From assembly GCA_015180985.1 (NCBI GenBank), contig CP054185.1, positions 1,481,001-1,545,000 of the forward strand: 64,000 bases of DNA, in the 5' to 3' direction. Below, piece by piece: positions 54,817-62,689 of the stretch (position 1 is the stretch's first letter; the number at the start of each line of letters is the position of its first letter). The translations under genes and the position numbers were made by a program. The DNA comes from Flammeovirgaceae bacterium. GTDB taxonomy: Bacteria; Bacteroidota; Bacteroidia; Cytophagales; Cyclobacteriaceae. The notes under the pieces were generated by a model. It was not told the origin of the DNA. It saw only the letters and a program-made list of their open reading frames with translations, and made no database searches.

Positions 54817-55449
54817 TCATTCCCAGATTGACTTCAGTTCCCTCCAGTAAACAAGTTCAAAAGCCCTAATTACGTCCTCGGGTGTTTGAACAGTTTTATA
54901 GTCCTCTAAAAGGAAGAAGTCGAATTCATCAAACTGATTTTGGAGATCACGGGTTCGATCAAAAAGTAAATTGCCGATCGCCTTACTGTCTGCGAGGAAC
55001 CGAATCCAAGTCCCTTCGATATGAGCTATCTGATAAACATGCCTATTATTACCTTTCGATTTATAAATCTTATTCGAAAAAAGTTTGTCAGTTGAGCAAT
55101 CAATACTGTCGATACAAAAATGTAATTGAAAGGCATGCTTAAATCTATTAAAACACGGAAGATAAATTTGATTTGATTTTTCAGAAATAATGCTTTCTAT
55201 TGGAACGACAGAATTATCTATAATGAAGTAATAGTGATCATTTGGATTATCAATAAATACTTTAAAGGGCTTTCCCTTTTTCCTTCTTTTTTGACTTTTT
55301 AATTGCTGTTTTATTACCTTTTTATCTATTGCGCGTATAAGGTAGCCATTAGCAGAAACTAGATTTTTCAAGCAATTGATCTTTTGTAATTCCTGTGCAT
55401 TGACAGAAGTATATAAAATTGTAAAAAATATAACGATTGAACTTTTCAT
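54817..55449 (-). CDS. Hypothetical exported protein, candidate immunity partner of RHS cassette A
   Basis: A 210-residue protein with a Sec signal (MKSSIVIFFTILYTSVNAQ). The mature part is Lys/Asp/Phe-rich with no recognised motif. It overlaps the end of RHS cassette A by 4 bp, so it is translated right behind it. The position and small size are those expected of a toxin-immunity gene; because the toxin tip is a metalloprotease, a periplasmic partner would fit. The base composition is AT-rich like the cassette and unlike core genes. Confidence 0.55.
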   Translation of the reverse strand: MKSSIVIFFTILYTSVNAQELQKINCLKNLVSANGYLIRAIDKKVIKQQLKSQKRRKKGKPFKVFIDNPNDHYYFIIDNSVVPIESIISEKSNQIYLPCFNRFKHAFQLHFCIDSIDCSTDKLFSNKIYKSKGNNRHVYQIAHIEGTWIRFLADSKAIGNLLFDRTRDLQNQFDEFDFFLLEDYKTVQTPEDVIRAFELVYWRELKSIWE

Positions 55450-56492
55450 TCTTGTTTTTTCTTGTTTAAATAAGAAACATCTTTCGGCTCCTCGATTCGT
55501 CTGATGATTGTTTCCCCAAATTTGGGTGTAACCTTTGTTTTTTCGACATAAGGTTCTGAGCAGCCGTTTCCATAGCAGTTTGGTTTTGTTCTATAACCTA
55601 AATAAATATGATCTTTATTAACTGGATTTGGATCACCATGCTCACCTCCAAGATTATGCCCGATCTCGTGGTTAATTGTGCTAACAATAATATCAAATTC
55701 ATTAAATCCGTTAGTAACGGCTTTTTGAATGTTATCATCATATATTTCAATCAAATTTGAACCACCATTAATGCTGGATCCTCCAACGTCCGCTCCAAAG
55801 CGGGACGTTGAGTTATCTGAATTGGTATTTACAATTTTATTACCGTAGGAGCTTTTACCTCCGAATTCATTGGTAAATTTATCGTTGTTCACAGCCTCAT
55901 TTACAGCTTCATCATTGTCAAAACCTTTTGCCGATAAATCATATTTGACTGAAACGTGGTTTCCAGCTTTATCCTTAAAATTAGATGTAGTGCTATTAAA
56001 ATTGGAGATCGATTGCTTTATGGCTGCGGCCTGAGATTTTGTTAAGTTATTTGTGTTGTAGTAGTAGTTAGCTTTTATTGTATAAGTTATTGGATCGGTC
56101 TTGGAACCACTTCCTGAAACAGTAACCATTCCATCACGTCCATCTTTATCAACAAAAAGGATCGGATTATTAAAGGTATAGTTGTAAGGATTCCAGCTAA
56201 AGTACTTTTCAGTCAGAGGGTCAACATGCCACCAACGTCCAACTTCAGGAGAATAAAATCTCGCTCCATAATCGTAAATACCCAGACTCAACTCATCCTG
56301 CAACTCCTTCCCATTGTAAAGATACCGCTGCTCATATACCCCTGCCCGTTCACCGGTAGTATGCTGCAACCCAAACGCAAAGTAATCGCTGGAGCTTACG
56401 ATGGGCGAGGGTGTGTGAGTAACGGTAATGTCATTCCCGCCTTTGGCGGGACAGGCAAAACGCACATCCACGTAAGTCACAGAGGACTTCAT
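55446..56492 (-). CDS. RHS-core fragment with metzincin-like protease tip (cassette A)
   Basis: A 348-residue ORF with ATG 56492 directly behind an in-frame TAA (TAA-ATG), so it cannot be the end of a longer RHS gene. Residues about 35-120 are RHS core (SSSDYFAFGLQHTTGERAGVYEQRYLYNGKELQDELSL, then GRWWHVDPLTEKYFSWNPYNYTFNNP and DGRD). The C-terminal tip has the zinc motif NHEIGHNLGGEHGD (HExxHxxGxxH), a metzincin-type metallopeptidase. It has no signal peptide. It resembles a toxin tip stored as an orphan module, followed by a candidate immunity gene. Confidence 0.8.
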   Translation of the reverse strand: MKSSVTYVDVRFACPAKGGNDITVTHTPSPIVSSSDYFAFGLQHTTGERAGVYEQRYLYNGKELQDELSLGIYDYGARFYSPEVGRWWHVDPLTEKYFSWNPYNYTFNNPILFVDKDGRDGMVTVSGSGSKTDPITYTIKANYYYNTNNLTKSQAAAIKQSISNFNSTTSNFKDKAGNHVSVKYDLSAKGFDNDEAVNEAVNNDKFTNEFGGKSSYGNKIVNTNSDNSTSRFGADVGGSSINGGSNLIEIYDDNIQKAVTNGFNEFDIIVSTINHEIGHNLGGEHGDPNPVNKDHIYLGYRTKPNCYGNGCSEPYVEKTKVTPKFGETIIRRIEEPKDVSYLNKKKQE

Positions 56493-56520
56493 TTATAACC
56501 TAATTTACCGAATACCTTCG
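56283..56520. repeat. RHS-core repeat block, copy A
   Basis: This DNA segment (RHS core of cassette A plus its upstream leader to the CCGAATACCTTCG end) is nearly identical to 62345-62587, including the palindrome CCCGCCTTTGGCGGG and the TTTATAACC leader. Shorter homologous pieces occur at about 59395-59470, 60785-60945 and 63915-64000. The repeats could recombine. Confidence 0.85.
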
Positions 56521-56621
56521 TTCCACCAAAAGTATTCCGCAGATACTATGTTTGAAAGAGCATAAGCCCCAGTGTACTAACTTTAATAAGTTATTGTATT
56601 AAAACAAAACACTCGAGGCTT

Positions 56622-57701
56622 ATGCAAAAACAAGTTAACAAAAAATTGGATTTCAGTGGACAAAACATTTACGTTGGTTTAGACACGCACAAGAAACAGA
56701 TCACGGTAACCATCATGGGCGAGAATTTGCATCTTAAAACTTTTAGTCAGCCTCCGGATGTCGATGTGTTGGTAAAATATCTAAATCGGAATTTTCCGGG
56801 TGCAACCTACCATGCTGCTTATGAAGCTGGGTATTCAGGATTTTGGTTGCAAGAAAGACTGCAGGCAAGTGGCGTTAACTGCATGGTTGTTCATGCAGCC
56901 GATGTGCCGACCAAAGACAAAGAGAAAAAACAAAAACGCGATCCCTTAGACAGTCGAAAAATTGCCAGGTCGTTAAAAAGTGGTGAGCTGGAGGCCATCT
57001 ATGTACCCAGCAAAAATTGTCAGCAAGACCGCAGCCTGTTACGGGCTCGTCAGCGGATTGTAGGCAATCAAACACGATGTCGTAATCGCATCAAAGCCTT
57101 ATTGAGTTATTTTGGGATTAATTACCCCGAACAATTCACCAGGTCGGGCACACATTGGTCTAAGCGATTCATGGAGTGGCTTAAGAAAGTGGACATCGGG
57201 AAAAGTGGGAACAACACATTAGCTACTTACCTGGCTGAAGCAGAATTCTGGAGAAGCACACTAACTACCATCCTCAAACAGATAAACACTCTGTCTGGTG
57301 AAGAGAAATATGCTAAGCCGGTAGAACTGCTGATCAGTGTGCCTGGCATAGGCCGGTTAACAGCCATGATGGTGTTGACTGAGTTAGAAGATATCAAACG
57401 ATTTAAAAGTCGTGATTCATTATGTAACTACATTGGCTTGGTGCCCAATGTTTCCTCATCGAGCGACCGTGAACATGTGGGCGACATCACACAACGAGGC
57501 AATAAAACGTTAAGGAAGTGCTTCATCGAAAGTGCCTGGGTTGCAGTACGTACCGATCCGGCATTGACTATGAAGTATAACCAACTATGCAGCCGAATGA
57601 AGGGTAATAAAGCCATCATTCGTATTGCCCGGATGTTGGTGAGCCGACTGCGTTATGTGTTGATTAACAAAACGGAATACGAACTTGGCGTAGCCGCTTA
57701 A
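56622..57701 (+). CDS. IS110 family transposase (DEDD RuvC-like plus Transposase_20)
   Basis: A 359-residue recombinase. The N-terminal DEDD/RuvC-like domain begins YVGLDTHKKQITVTIMG (first catalytic Asp), with a second acidic motif at AYEAGYSGFWLQERL and a third around KRDPLDSRKIARSL. The C-terminal Tnp domain contains LISVPGIGRLTAMMVLTELEDIKRFKSRDSLCNYIGLVP and the conserved Ser in NVSSSSDREHVGDITQRGN(K)TLRKCF. It is full length, with no frameshift. IS110 enzymes are RNA-guided recombinases that cut and join through the serine. Confidence 0.93.
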   Translation: MQKQVNKKLDFSGQNIYVGLDTHKKQITVTIMGENLHLKTFSQPPDVDVLVKYLNRNFPGATYHAAYEAGYSGFWLQERLQASGVNCMVVHAADVPTKDKEKKQKRDPLDSRKIARSLKSGELEAIYVPSKNCQQDRSLLRARQRIVGNQTRCRNRIKALLSYFGINYPEQFTRSGTHWSKRFMEWLKKVDIGKSGNNTLATYLAEAEFWRSTLTTILKQINTLSGEEKYAKPVELLISVPGIGRLTAMMVLTELEDIKRFKSRDSLCNYIGLVPNVSSSSDREHVGDITQRGNKTLRKCFIESAWVAVRTDPALTMKYNQLCSRMKGNKAIIRIARMLVSRLRYVLINKTEYELGVAA

Positions 57702-57712
57702 CCATATAAAAG

Positions 57713-57870
57713 TTATAAACGGTGGGCACAATGTAAGGGGACTCTTGCAGCCTCTGGATTTCAGAGTGACTGCTTTCCGCAGATTACAGCCCACCTTTAT
57801 AAAAATATAAAAGGTATCGTGCAGCTTCCGAAAAGGAATGACTGCTTATAGAAGATTGATTTTATACTTG
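57713..57870 (+). ncRNA. Predicted bridge RNA of the IS110-family element
   Basis: Two consecutive stem-loops share the inner stem GCAG...TGACTGC (57747-57773 and 57820-57845). Loop 1 is closed by TTATAAA-GGTGGGC with GCCCACC-TTTATAA (57713-57727 with 57789-57802). Its left strand GGGGACTCTT (57737-57746) is the exact complement of the right terminus AAGAGTCCCC (58066-58075). Loop 2 is closed by TATAAAA with TTTTATA (57806-57812 and 57860-57866). Its left strand AAGGTAT (57811-57817) complements the target flank ATACCTT (56512-56518). So loop 1 looks donor-binding and loop 2 target-binding. The right-hand guides are not resolved. Confidence 0.7.
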
Positions 57871-58096
57871 GTAAAGGGTAAAGCCAGGGCTATGTTGGAA
57901 ACTCTTTTTCGGTTTTCCTAAAAAAGAAAGGACTGCCAATTTTGCCTATTAACAGTCCAAATCTTTTTCAGTGTAAACCCTGCTTGTTCGCTGAGGTTTC
58001 CAATCGCAGCCACGCAGGTAAAACAATAACAAAATTAGTGCATCAGGACTTGACTTTCAACATAGAAGAGTCCCCGGAGGGAGACTCTGCGGGGAG

Positions 58097-58574: not shown

Positions 58575-59453
58575 TTATTTCGTAATTCTTTTCATTGCTG
58601 TAACAGTCAATCTTAACTGTTCTATGGATCGATTGTTATAGAATACAGCACCTAATGGAGTCTTCGTGGTTTTGTAGCTACCATCTGTGTTAATAGTGAC
58701 AGTTGACCTACCCAGTCTTCCAACAATAATATTTTTTTCGTAAAACTTGAAGGCTGTTTGGTCGCTAAACATCCCCTTTGATGGCTCTGTTGCGGTCATC
58801 GGATAATATACGCCATCAGCAATTAGAATCCCTGTTGCGTGGGAATGAATAGCTGCTTCAACATCTTCATATGTACTACCTTCGGGTAATTTAGGAAGCG
58901 AAGCTTTACCGATTAGCTCTCCATTTTTGACTTGCACCTTATCACCAGACTCACCTCTGATTACTTTGTTGTTTTTCATCACTAGCGATGACTCTTCGTG
59001 AAATCCACCTTCAGGGTCTTTTGGAGTCTTTTTTAGCGTTCTATCCAAAACATTAAGTGATTCAGTTAATGTCGTTTTTGTAGTTTCATAGCCAGTTTTA
59101 ATTGAACTCGACTCAGTAGGAGTATTGTTCTTATAATTTTGCTTAATTCTTTTAATCTCAGATTTATCGGTAACTATTCTTACTTTACCGTCAATTCCTT
59201 TCTCATCTTCACCAATTTTTTTACCATTAGATTTAAATAGCTCAGTAAACATTCCCGATGGATCAATGAAAATAAGCGGATTGTTTTTAACGTAAGTGTA
59301 TGGCGACCAATTGAAATAATGTTCTAAGGCTATGTCTTGCGATAGAAATCTACCTATTGAAGCATCGTAATGCCTGGTATTATAATCCAGCCATCCAATG
59401 TTCAACTCATCCTGCAACTCCTTCCCATTGTAAAGATGCCGCTGCTCATACAC
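58575..59453 (-). CDS. RHS-core fragment with putative JAB/MPN-like hydrolase tip (cassette B)
   Basis: A 292-residue ORF beginning within the RHS core (YEQRHLYNGKELQDELNIGWLDY, then GRFLSQDIALEHYFNWSPYTYVKNNPLIFIDPSG). The upstream core is cut at GERAG, where unrelated DNA starts. The tip contains GGFHEESSLV (Glu) and AAIHSHATGILIADG, with MFSDQTAF later: an E...H-S-H...S-D order like JAB/MPN metalloproteases. That assignment is moderate. A candidate immunity gene follows. Confidence 0.65.
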   Translation of the reverse strand: MYEQRHLYNGKELQDELNIGWLDYNTRHYDASIGRFLSQDIALEHYFNWSPYTYVKNNPLIFIDPSGMFTELFKSNGKKIGEDEKGIDGKVRIVTDKSEIKRIKQNYKNNTPTESSSIKTGYETTKTTLTESLNVLDRTLKKTPKDPEGGFHEESSLVMKNNKVIRGESGDKVQVKNGELIGKASLPKLPEGSTYEDVEAAIHSHATGILIADGVYYPMTATEPSKGMFSDQTAFKFYEKNIIVGRLGRSTVTINTDGSYKTTKTPLGAVFYNNRSIEQLRLTVTAMKRITK

Positions 59454-59894: not shown

Positions 59895-61073
59895 CTACTC
59901 ATGGCATGGATTACTATACGAAGACCTGTGATAATACGTAGTGGGTGACGATATCAAAGAATAGTTAGCCGGAACGCCCATAAGAGCACTTCTTACACCT
60001 GGATAAGCTTGCATTAATGTACTCCTTGTGGAGCTAATATTAACCGGAACTATTCCCGTATTGGCAGAACCACCAACTGAATATGGTCTACTTCCATCAG
60101 ATGCGGTTATCCCTTGAACCCAAGTCGCAGTTATAGCTCCATACGAATCAGCTACAGACGTGGATTTAAGTCGAGATACAGACGAAGGGTCATAAGCCCA
60201 TTGAGCTCTGTACGCATCCATTTCGTCATATACATCTTGGCCTAATGATTGACCATTTGTGGTACTAAAGGCTACATCGCCATGCTCAAACTGGACAGCA
60301 TGGGTTGACTCATGTACGAAACTTGAGGTTGAACCAAAGCTGATTACAACATTTCCAGTTCCTGGATCATACGTAGTCCCACCAAGTTCATCATTTGTCT
60401 TTTGCAATTGATACACTTGGCTGCTACTTTCCAGTCTATCAAGTCCTGCAATAGTTGTGTTTAAACCGTCTACTCTGCCTTGCAAATTGTTGGTCTTGCT
60501 TGCAATTTTCTCCGCACTCCATCCCTTCTTTTCAGCTTTGGCTTCAAGTTTATCAATTCTCTTTTGAAGTTTGTCACGCCTATTTTCAACCGATTTCCTT
60601 TGCTTATCCCATTCCTTACGGCTTCCTTCTTCAATCTCTCGTCCGTCTGGATCGATAAAATTGATCGGATTGTTAGCTACAAAAGTATAAGGTGAAGATG
60701 GATAATACTTCTCAGCTAATTGATCTATGACACTCCATCTCCCTATGGTTGGATCATATTGACGCCAACCGAAATCGTAGGTTGCAAGGGATAGCTCATC
60801 CTGCAACTCCTTGCCATTATAAAGATGGCGCTGCTCATACACTCCTGCCCTTTCTCCTGTCGAATGCTGCAACCCAAACGCAAAGTAATCGCTGGAGCTT
60901 ACAATGGGTGAGGGGGTGTGCGTAACCGTTACATCGTCAAAGTAAATGTCAACGTATGTGGGATGTTCGTTGCTTACAAATACATAGGCAAAGCCCGGCT
61001 CGCGCACGGTTACTTCTTTAAACAAATAATCGTGGGGCGGTTGTTTTACGGTGGGGCTGCTTTGTTGCCACAT
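59895..61073 (-). CDS. RHS-core fragment with HExxH peptidase tip (cassette C)
   Basis: A 392-residue ORF. Residues about 20-75 are an RHS core with the undisturbed version SNEHPTYVDIYFDDVTVTHTPSPIVSSSDYFAFGLQ, then HLYNGKELQDEL and GRWSVIDQLAEKYYPSSPYTFVANNPINFIDPDGRE. A coiled-coil spacer (KRKSVENRRDKLQKRIDKLEAKAEKK) leads to a tip with FVHESTHAVQFEHG, a HExxH zinc motif. The long C-terminal domain is otherwise unrecognised. This copy is the reference for the intact core, because copies A and D carry an inserted palindrome. Confidence 0.75.
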   Translation of the reverse strand: MWQQSSPTVKQPPHDYLFKEVTVREPGFAYVFVSNEHPTYVDIYFDDVTVTHTPSPIVSSSDYFAFGLQHSTGERAGVYEQRHLYNGKELQDELSLATYDFGWRQYDPTIGRWSVIDQLAEKYYPSSPYTFVANNPINFIDPDGREIEEGSRKEWDKQRKSVENRRDKLQKRIDKLEAKAEKKGWSAEKIASKTNNLQGRVDGLNTTIAGLDRLESSSQVYQLQKTNDELGGTTYDPGTGNVVISFGSTSSFVHESTHAVQFEHGDVAFSTTNGQSLGQDVYDEMDAYRAQWAYDPSSVSRLKSTSVADSYGAITATWVQGITASDGSRPYSVGGSANTGIVPVNISSTRSTLMQAYPGVRSALMGVPANYSLISSPTTYYHRSSYSNPCHE

Positions 61074-61591: not shown

Positions 61592-62559
61592 TGCCTTACG
61601 TTTAGTTGAGTACTAAATTTTAAACTTGAGGTGTTGTCTTCTACAGGCGTTCTAATAACACTTTTTGTGCTTGATGAACCATTTTTCAAGCCAGGATTCT
61701 CATTTATTGGGTTCAGTACAGCACCATTCTTAGATCTAACTTCATAGTGTAAATGATTGCCAGTTGAATGCCCAGTATTACCGATTTTTCCTATCTCATC
61801 TCCTCTACTAATGTTATCTCCGGTCTTTACGTTATCAGTAGACCCATCCTGCATATGATAAAATCTGTGAATTTTACTATCCTTATTGGCAGTCAAGTGG
61901 ACATAATTACCTCTCCCTGAATCTGATCCCTTTTCAGAAATCTTACCGTTTAAAGGCGCTGATACTTTGGCTCCTCCTGTTGGACCTTCTGATTTAACAA
62001 TATCAACTCCAGTATGGGGTCTAATTTTGTCTTGGGTTACGGGATCAAGTCGGGCTGAAGATATGCCCGATGTTATTTTAGGATCTTTTACAGGAGAAAT
62101 GATTAGCTGATCATCGGCAAAGGTCTCAGCAGCATTTTGATCTTTAAATGGACCATATACTTTTCTGGCTGAACCATCTGAGTATTTAATGTCCCAAGCC
62201 TCAAGCCCTTCCAATTCAATATGAGCAGTCACCTTATTCTCACTAAACGCATAAGTCGAGTTGTAATAGTACTTTTCCGCAATTGGATCCACATTAAAAA
62301 ACCTGCCAATACCCGGATCATGGTTTCGCCACTTAAACTGAACCCAGCGAATGTTGAGTTCATCTTGCAGTTCCTGGGATTGAAAGAGTGTACGCTGCTC
62401 ATACACTCCCGCCCGCTCCCCGGTAGTGTGTTGTAACCCAAAAGCAAAATAATCGCTGGAGCTTACTATGGGCGAGGGGGTGTGGGTAACGGTAATGTCA
62501 TTCCCGCCTTTGGCGGGACAGGCAAAATGCACATCCACGTAAGTCACAGAGTACTTCAT
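61588..62559 (-). CDS. RHS-core fragment with M23 peptidase tip (cassette D)
   Basis: A 323-residue ORF with ATG 62559 directly behind TAA, as in cassette A. The core (SSSDYFAFGLQHTTGERAGVYEQR, then TLFQSQELQDELNIRWVQFKWRNHDPGIGRFF) leads to a tip with the LytM/M23 zinc pattern: HTGVDIV, HRFYHM and HLHYEVRSKNGAVLNP, with GKIGNTGHSTGNHLH. M23 enzymes cleave peptidoglycan cross-links, so an anti-bacterial toxin is plausible. It is followed by a small exported protein (candidate immunity). Confidence 0.85.
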   Translation of the reverse strand: MKYSVTYVDVHFACPAKGGNDITVTHTPSPIVSSSDYFAFGLQHTTGERAGVYEQRTLFQSQELQDELNIRWVQFKWRNHDPGIGRFFNVDPIAEKYYYNSTYAFSENKVTAHIELEGLEAWDIKYSDGSARKVYGPFKDQNAAETFADDQLIISPVKDPKITSGISSARLDPVTQDKIRPHTGVDIVKSEGPTGGAKVSAPLNGKISEKGSDSGRGNYVHLTANKDSKIHRFYHMQDGSTDNVKTGDNISRGDEIGKIGNTGHSTGNHLHYEVRSKNGAVLNPINENPGLKNGSSSTKSVIRTPVEDNTSSLKFSTQLNVRQ

Positions 62560-62587
62560 TTATAACCTAATTTACCGAATACCTTCG
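62345..62587. repeat. RHS-core repeat block, copy D (uninterrupted IS target)
   Basis: This segment is nearly identical to the copy A block at 56283-56520. It continues CCTTCGGAGGGAGACTCTGCGGGG at 62582-62605, which in copy A is split by the IS110 element. The pair therefore gives the pre-insertion sequence. Confidence 0.85.
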
Positions 62588-62689
62588 GAGGGAGACTCTG
62601 CGGGGAAGGAAAAATAATCATCTGTGCCTGTGTTTCCGATAATGATTCCTGTAGTGGTATCCCAAAGTGGGAACAAGGACTGAGGTTGC

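What the first reader, a model, noticed from the sequence alone, without database searches (positions are those of the whole stretch)
57713..57870. IS110-family right end encodes a bridge RNA with recognisable donor and target guides
The noncoding right end has two stem-loops with the same inner stem GCAG...TGACTGC. In the first, the left loop strand GGGGACTCTT is a perfect 10-nt complement of the element's right terminus AAGAGTCCCC (58066-58075). In the equivalent position of the second, AAGGTAT is a 7-nt complement of ATACCTT just before the insertion point (56512-56518). Bridge RNAs of IS110 elements carry one donor-binding and one target-binding loop, so the layout, order and complementarity agree. 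It lies downstream of the transposase, as in IS1111-type members. The right target guide is not evident by eye.
Basis: partly seen in the sequence, partly recalled or inferred. Interest (0 to 1): 0.85.

Follow-up and report, generated by a model that had tools for sequence, protein, structure and literature searches.

The report
IS110 bridge RNA, loops swapped

Summary
Two stem-loops with a GCAG...TGACTGC inner stem lie downstream of an IS110-family transposase, and the 10-nt complementarity is real. Four copies in the genome, 14 relatives and one held-out relative fix the ends. The core dinucleotide is AG; the element spans 56541-58068. Of 'AAGAGTCCCC' only AAG belongs to the element; AGTCCCC is target. 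Loop 1 is the target loop: its 5' strand pairs with the right flank (98 of 118 positions in 15 elements) and its 3' strand matches the left flank (last four nt, 50 of 60). Loop 2 is the donor loop: its 5' strand pairs with the left end (59 of 70) and its 3' strand equals the right end (89 of 91). No permutation reached these values. Rejoining flanks at AG restores hairpins in several elements and an open frame in one host gene. RNA position and guide order are IS1111-like, left-end spacing is not. There is no transcript evidence.

The parts
56541..58068 (+). the IS110-family element, core AG to core AG (1528 bp)
   Evidence: junctions of 4 copies in the genome; sTIR and core in 14 relatives
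56541..56542 (+). left core dinucleotide AG (shared with the target)
   Evidence: rejoining at AG gives the longest hairpin arm in L001, L023, L031, L050 of 13 elements tested
56543..56558 (+). left end: ATA, then subterminal inverted repeat CTATGTTTGAAAG; holds TATGTTTG, one half of a possible circle-junction promoter
56622..57701 (+). transposase, 359 aa, DEDD_Tnp_IS110 + Transposase_20
   Evidence: Pfam and NCBIfam; D21, E68, D107, D110, S280 invariant in a 6-member alignment; the acidic residues lie opposite IS621 D11, E60, D102, D105
57721..57795 (+). [quoted passage not shown]
   Evidence: folds; inner-stem pairs change type and stay standard in 13 elements (segments picked by eye); outer stems differ in sequence between elements
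57737..57745 (+). 5' target guide GGGGACT plus core-pairing CT; [quoted passage not shown]
   Evidence: 98 of 118 positions in 15 elements, 0 of 100,000 permutations
57775..57782 (+). 3' target guide TTCCGC plus core AG; same sense as left flank + core (56535-56542)
   Evidence: last 4 nt match at 50 of 60 positions in 15 elements, 0 of 100,000 permutations
57783..57784 (+). two post-core bases matching the left end (handshake-like)
   Evidence: 22 of 30 positions, 5 of 100,000 permutations
57806..57866 (+). [quoted passage not shown]
   Evidence: comparative alignment and stem table; the minimum-energy fold shows the inner stem but pairs the outer strands otherwise, that (longer stretch) pairs them
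57813..57817 (+). 5' donor guide GGTAT; pairs with left end ATACT (56543-56547) with one G.T wobble
   Evidence: 59 of 70 positions in 14 elements, 0 of 100,000 permutations
57848..57854 (+). 3' donor guide ATAGAAG; same sense as right end ATAGAAG (58062-58068)
   Evidence: 89 of 91 positions in 13 elements (cross-pair mean 76.3), 0 of 50,000 permutations
58054..58068 (+). right end: sTIR CTTTCAACATAG, A, core AG
58069..58092 (+). right half of the target; with 56537-56540 and the core it forms a hairpin CCGCAGAGTC...GACTCTGCGG
   Evidence: 10-bp arms when joined at AG; 7 or 0 at the other 16 shifts tested

Best explanation
This is an IS110-family insertion sequence whose downstream noncoding region encodes a two-loop bridge RNA (seekRNA). 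[quoted passage not shown] Recombination occurs at an AG core. Shown by sequence comparison: ends, core, guide-flank and guide-end covariation, restored hairpins and reading frame. Inferred: transcription of the RNA, binding to the transposase, the circular intermediate, strand-exchange chemistry, and expression from a promoter made at the circle junction.
For: Fixed-register permutation tests (15 elements, 14 for the donor guide): target 5' guide 98/118 (33.7 expected from cross pairs), target 3' guide last four 50/60 (16.9), donor 5' guide 59/70 (28.7), each 0 of 100,000 permutations. Donor 3' guide 89/91 (76.3), 0 of 50,000, 13 elements. Blind scan without a chosen register, 15 elements: right flank 0/20,000, right end 0/20,000, left end 274/20,000; opposite-strand controls not significant. 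All four genomic copies match the right-flank guide at 6-7 of 8 and the left-flank guide at 5-6 of 8 positions. Joining flanks at AG gives the longest hairpin arm in L001 (10 bp), L023 (19), L031 (13), L050 (9). In L003 the AG join reads LGTLQDAGSPHIGC in an open frame, the same length as 12 intact homologues. Held-out element L057: 7/8, 3/4, 2/2, 5/5.
Against: No RNA-seq or biochemistry. The fixed registers were set by eye on the same 15 elements (inner-stem and TRCRR anchors), and by eye again in L057; the blind scan supports three of four pairings, but not the left-flank guide (3620/20,000, n = 14). L055 matches its right flank at only 3 of 8 positions; L003 and L004 match the left-flank guide at 5 of 8. 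Of 13 elements tested for hairpins, 7 have none, L027 ties at several shifts and L030 is longer at other shifts (6 against 5). L030 and L057 have AG at the left core but AA at the right. Blind scans of three more distant relatives and L057 were weak: 28 (L052), 126 (L013), 458 (L015) and 86 (L057) of 500 shuffles did as well (the L057 window there was one base off).
Confidence: 0.9

Rival explanations
1. One reading: loop 1 is the donor loop (AAGAGTCCC is the element's right end) and loop 2 is the target loop with left guide AAGGTAT.
For: All four copies have AGTCCC after AAG, so the loop-1 guides could be read as matching an RE-LE junction; a 7-nt loop-2 match exists left of L001 and L002.
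Against: The sequence after AAG is not conserved among relatives but tracks loop 1; loop 2 tracks the ends; hairpins would have to be split by chance at the element boundary; L003 and L004 lack ATACCTT; the L003 join under this model gives no open frame through the interrupted gene.
Confidence: 0.03
2. One loop does everything, as in a short seekRNA: loop 1 reads target and ends, and loop 2 is only a transposase-binding structure whose resemblance to the right end is coincidence or a processing feature.
For: Siddiquee et al. report 70-100-nt seekRNAs, of which the 82-nt one was enough for transposition of ISEc11 (PMC11187229).
Against: Loop 2 strands co-vary with both element ends (59/70 and 89/91).
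Confidence: 0.05
3. The stem-loops are only a terminator or mRNA-stability structure of the transposase gene.
For: They lie directly downstream of the ORF and fold well.
Against: Does not predict covariation with host flanks.
Confidence: 0.01

Closest known systems
IS1111-group seekRNA elements (ISEc11, ISPa11, ISKpn4; Siddiquee et al. 2024, PMC11187229)
   Same: noncoding region downstream of tnp; subterminal inverted repeats; in the RNA the top-strand complement of the target precedes the bottom-strand match; some targets are potentially folded (REP, attC); 3 bp between the right sTIR and the target
   Different: 3-4 bp rather than 6-7 bp between target and left sTIR; transposase 359 aa against 330-350; two simple internal loops, whereas Durrant et al. 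[quoted passage not shown]
IS621 / IS110-group bridge RNA (Durrant et al. 2024, PMC11208160; structural companion PMC11208158)
   Same: target loop then donor loop, each an internal loop with two guides overlapping at a core dinucleotide; post-core bases of the target loop match the other DNA, as in handshake pairing
   Different: RNA downstream, not upstream, of tnp; strand order of the guides reversed; core AG, not CT; long sTIR
IS4321 (locus L065; IS1111-group membership recalled)
   Same: 12-bp inverted repeat near the ends and a noncoding region downstream
   Different: transposase about 22% identical by tblastn

Membership tests
IS110 family (DEDD transposase) | DEDD RuvC-like N-terminal domain plus Transposase_20 C-terminal domain | tested here: met
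   PF01548 E 3.4e-14, PF02371 E 1.9e-21, NF033542 201 bits over cut-off 140
IS110 family (DEDD transposase) | catalytic D, E, D, D and S | tested here: met
   D21, E68, D107, D110, S280 invariant in 6 members; the four acidic residues align with IS621; the serine assignment rests on the G--P----S motif
Bridge RNA / seekRNA | noncoding RNA with target and donor guides that co-vary with target and ends | tested here: met
Bridge RNA / seekRNA | RNA is transcribed, binds the transposase and is needed for transposition | not testable with these tools
   needs RNP purification and assays
IS1111 group | long noncoding region downstream of tnp | tested here: met
   in L001 and the 14 relatives (lengths 234-461 nt)
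IS1111 group | sTIR of 7-17 bp | tested here: met
   CTATGTTTGAAAG / CTTTCAACATAG, one 1-bp indel
IS1111 group | top-strand complement precedes bottom-strand match in the target loop | tested here: met
IS1111 group | terminal extensions of 7 (or 6) bp left and 3 bp right of the sTIR | tested here: not met
   right 3 bp (AAG) fits; left 3-4 bp in the 15 elements
IS1111 group | transposase clusters with IS1111-group transposases | not tested
   no reference set of ISfinder proteins; only pairwise matches
IS110 group (IS621-like) | noncoding region upstream of tnp, bottom-strand match first | tested here: not met
   RNA is downstream and the order is reversed

The most novel reading that the evidence does not exclude
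Elements of this clade represent a third layout of bridge-RNA recombination: IS1111 guide order and RNA position, an IS621-like pair of simple internal loops in target-donor order, an AG core, short left-end spacing, handshake-like pairing in the reversed strand order, and a promoter assembled only at the circle junction; several target one arm of a hairpin (5 of 14 sites with arms of 9 bp or more, one of them with only 4 nt of left flank, against 0.46% of 2824 background points).
Probability: 0.3. Interest if true: 0.5.

Novelty: new member of a known kind. Interest (0 to 1): 0.42.

Why it matters
It gives a complete, testable guide map, including the donor guides, for a downstream-RNA IS110-family element with four near-identical copies in one genome (three with an intact, identical transposase). 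Covariation suggests that a donor loop and handshake-like pairing, worked out for IS621, also exist in the reversed strand order. It also shows how easily donor and target loops are swapped when element ends are judged from one copy, since bases required in the target look like element ends.

Tried and rejected
Rejected: core CC or CT with AAGAGTCC as right end (my own first model, note), because the two ends disagreed in L004 and hairpins were split. Rejected: 6+3 boundaries without a shared core, because the L003 gene is then one codon shorter than its homologues. Tried without result: repeats of the target hairpin elsewhere in the genome (only L001, L002 and one paralogue without the element; none); relatives in viral contigs (none; one truncated locus), phages (none at E 1e-40) and plasmids (two at 32% identity); Rfam (none; one sub-threshold microRNA match); wider searches (no new member in 86 genomes; one in 199). 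MAFFT alignment of the whole RNA aligned loop 2 but not the 5' part of loop 1, so no covariance model was built. Stems were compared as segments picked by eye; an unguided search for the outer stem of loop 1 found the expected helix in 7 of 15 elements (L050, L025, L026, L028, L023, L029, L032) and another, or a shifted one, in 8.

Rows dropped before the counts: of 26 loci encoding relatives 14 were used. Not used: L018 and L020 (copies of the L012 element), L013, L015, L052 (distant, other right end), L014, L016, L054, L024, L053 (ends not assigned), L056 (truncated), L057 (held out). L031 has no donor-guide entry; one search used 13 elements, leaving out L031 and L055.

Full report
What is there. 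The window holds one copy of an IS110-family insertion sequence. Its 359-aa transposase (56622-57701) matches DEDD_Tnp_IS110, Transposase_20 and NCBIfam's IS110 RNA-guided transposase. The genome (3.38 Mb, one contig, unnamed) holds four near-identical copies, L001 (the window), L002, L003 and L004. The transposase of L004 is broken; the other three encode identical proteins. The last 370 nt, with the RNA, are identical in all four.

Ends. All copies share the left end CAGATACTATG, preceded by G, and CATAGAAGAGTCCC at the right, which tempts one to include AGTCCC and GC in the element. Relatives show otherwise. In L001 and 14 relatives (transposases 39-52% identical to the window's) the conserved parts are AG-NNN-NTATG at the left and CATA-N-N-AG at the right (AA in L030), next to a subterminal inverted repeat; bases further out are not conserved. 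Joining the two flanks with a single AG was tested in 13 elements with shifts of -8 to +8. The longest hairpin arm falls exactly at AG in L001 (10 bp), L023 (19), L031 (13) and L050 (9). L027 ties at several shifts, its left flank being 4 nt long; L030 has 5 bp at AG and 6 at two other shifts; the other seven have no hairpin. For L003 the AG join reads LGTLQDAGSPHIGC in an open frame through an interrupted host gene (I call it a metallo-beta-lactamase-fold protein from recall of its HAHIGHY motif). Of 13 homologue loci from other genomes, 12 cover the position and read LG or MG, two residues, Q, then DAG or DGG, the same length; the 13th (L049) starts later. The core is therefore AG, at 56541-56542 and 58067-58068.

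Loop 1 reads the target. With the register fixed by the inner stem, the eight bases 5' of the core-pairing CU are complementary to the eight bases right of the core: 98 of 118 positions in 15 elements, 33.7 expected from cross pairs, 0 of 100,000 permutations. The 3' strand, with the register fixed by a TRCRR motif two bases after AG, matches the last four left-flank bases at 50 of 60 positions (16.9 expected; 0 of 100,000) and shows nothing at positions 5-8 (18 of 56). Swapped controls (5' strand with left flank, 22 of 112; 3' strand with right flank, 28 of 118) are at chance. A blind scan of the whole noncoding region supports the right-flank pairing (0 of 20,000) but not the left-flank one (3620 of 20,000), which is short. 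The right flank is host DNA, so shared ancestry of the elements is an unlikely source of the signal. The four copies in this genome match at 7, 7, 6 and 7 of 8 right-flank positions (one further wobble each in L003 and L004) and at 6, 6, 5 and 5 of 8 left-flank positions (one further wobble in L003).

Loop 2 reads the donor. Five bases of its 5' strand pair with the five bases after the left core: 59 of 70 in 14 elements, 28.7 expected. Its 3' strand equals the last seven bases of the right end: 89 of 91 in 13 elements, 76.3 expected, including co-variants ATAGGAG, ATAAAAG and ATAACAG. Relatedness inflates these two tests, since ends and RNA are inherited together, but paired changes in several elements remain.

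Handshake-like bases. The two bases after AG in the 3' strand of loop 1 match the first two of the left end at 22 of 30 positions (5 of 100,000 permutations). In loop 2 the first post-core base matches the right flank in 8 of 13 (3.9 expected; 1023 of 50,000), two bases do not (8 of 26; 17,197 of 50,000). In IS621 such handshake guides pair with the incoming DNA after strand exchange (PMC11208158, passages seen).

Held-out check. L057, found after the model was fixed, gives 7/8, 3/4, 2/2 and 5/5, with anchors again placed by eye. Its right core is AA and its guide UU, as in L030; the left core is AG in both. I cannot say whether this is mutation or heteroduplex resolution. Blind scans of L057 and three distant relatives were weak.

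Expression. If the ends are abutted, TTG stands exactly 17 nt before TATG in 12 of 18 elements examined, including the three distant ones, which lack it (base rate 27 of 1404). TATGTTTG fits the Bacteroidota -7 element TAnnTTTG (recalled). A promoter made at the circle junction is reported for both groups (PMC11187229). For this element it is inferred.

Comparison with the known. I read parts 1-3 of the text and sections 12-14 of Siddiquee et al. 2024 (PMC11187229), passages and one section of Durrant et al. 2024 (PMC11208160) and passages of the structural companion (PMC11208158); figures are not held. RNA position, sTIR and guide order are as in IS1111; loop order, simple internal loops and core-overlapping guides are as in IS621. 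The left spacing (3-4 nt) differs from the 7 (or 6) nt stated for IS1111. Siddiquee et al. mention IS110-type groups with a downstream region, so this clade may already be represented in ISfinder, which I could not search. Six paper searches listed no title on elements of this clade, but some lists were capped and the library is partial.

Confidence. That this is a bridge RNA with loop 1 for the target and loop 2 for the donor: 0.9. That it works is not shown: no transcript or assay was available.

Noticed in passing
window 57897-58034: A stretch between the bridge RNA and the right end is 82% identical, over about 138 bases, to the right-end region of four copies (L005-L008) of what looks to me like an IS3-family element (not tested by a family search) in the same genome: two IS types share a noncoding 3' module. 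In one search (196 genomes, own included) only two other genomes had short matches.
   Followed up: partly
window 62517-62605 (L009) against 56450-56520 and 58076-58094: A paralogous RHS-like site has the same outer flanks but lacks about 30 bp of the target hairpin region, so it is not a simple empty site.
   Followed up: partly
window 55446-56492, 58575-59453, 59895-61073: ORFs that share RHS-like stretches; the name is from recall, no family search was made.
   Followed up: no
L004: The fourth copy has a broken transposase but the same ends and an identical RNA region, so it might be moved in trans.
   Followed up: no
L030, L057: Right core AA with guide UU, left core AG: the core may be exchangeable.
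   Followed up: partly
L013, L015, L052: A more distant group (37-40% identity) ends in CATAGCAC and may keep the loop-1 guide for the right flank: best match 8 of 8 in L052 and 7 of 8 in L013, but only 6 of 8 at another place in L015.
   Followed up: partly
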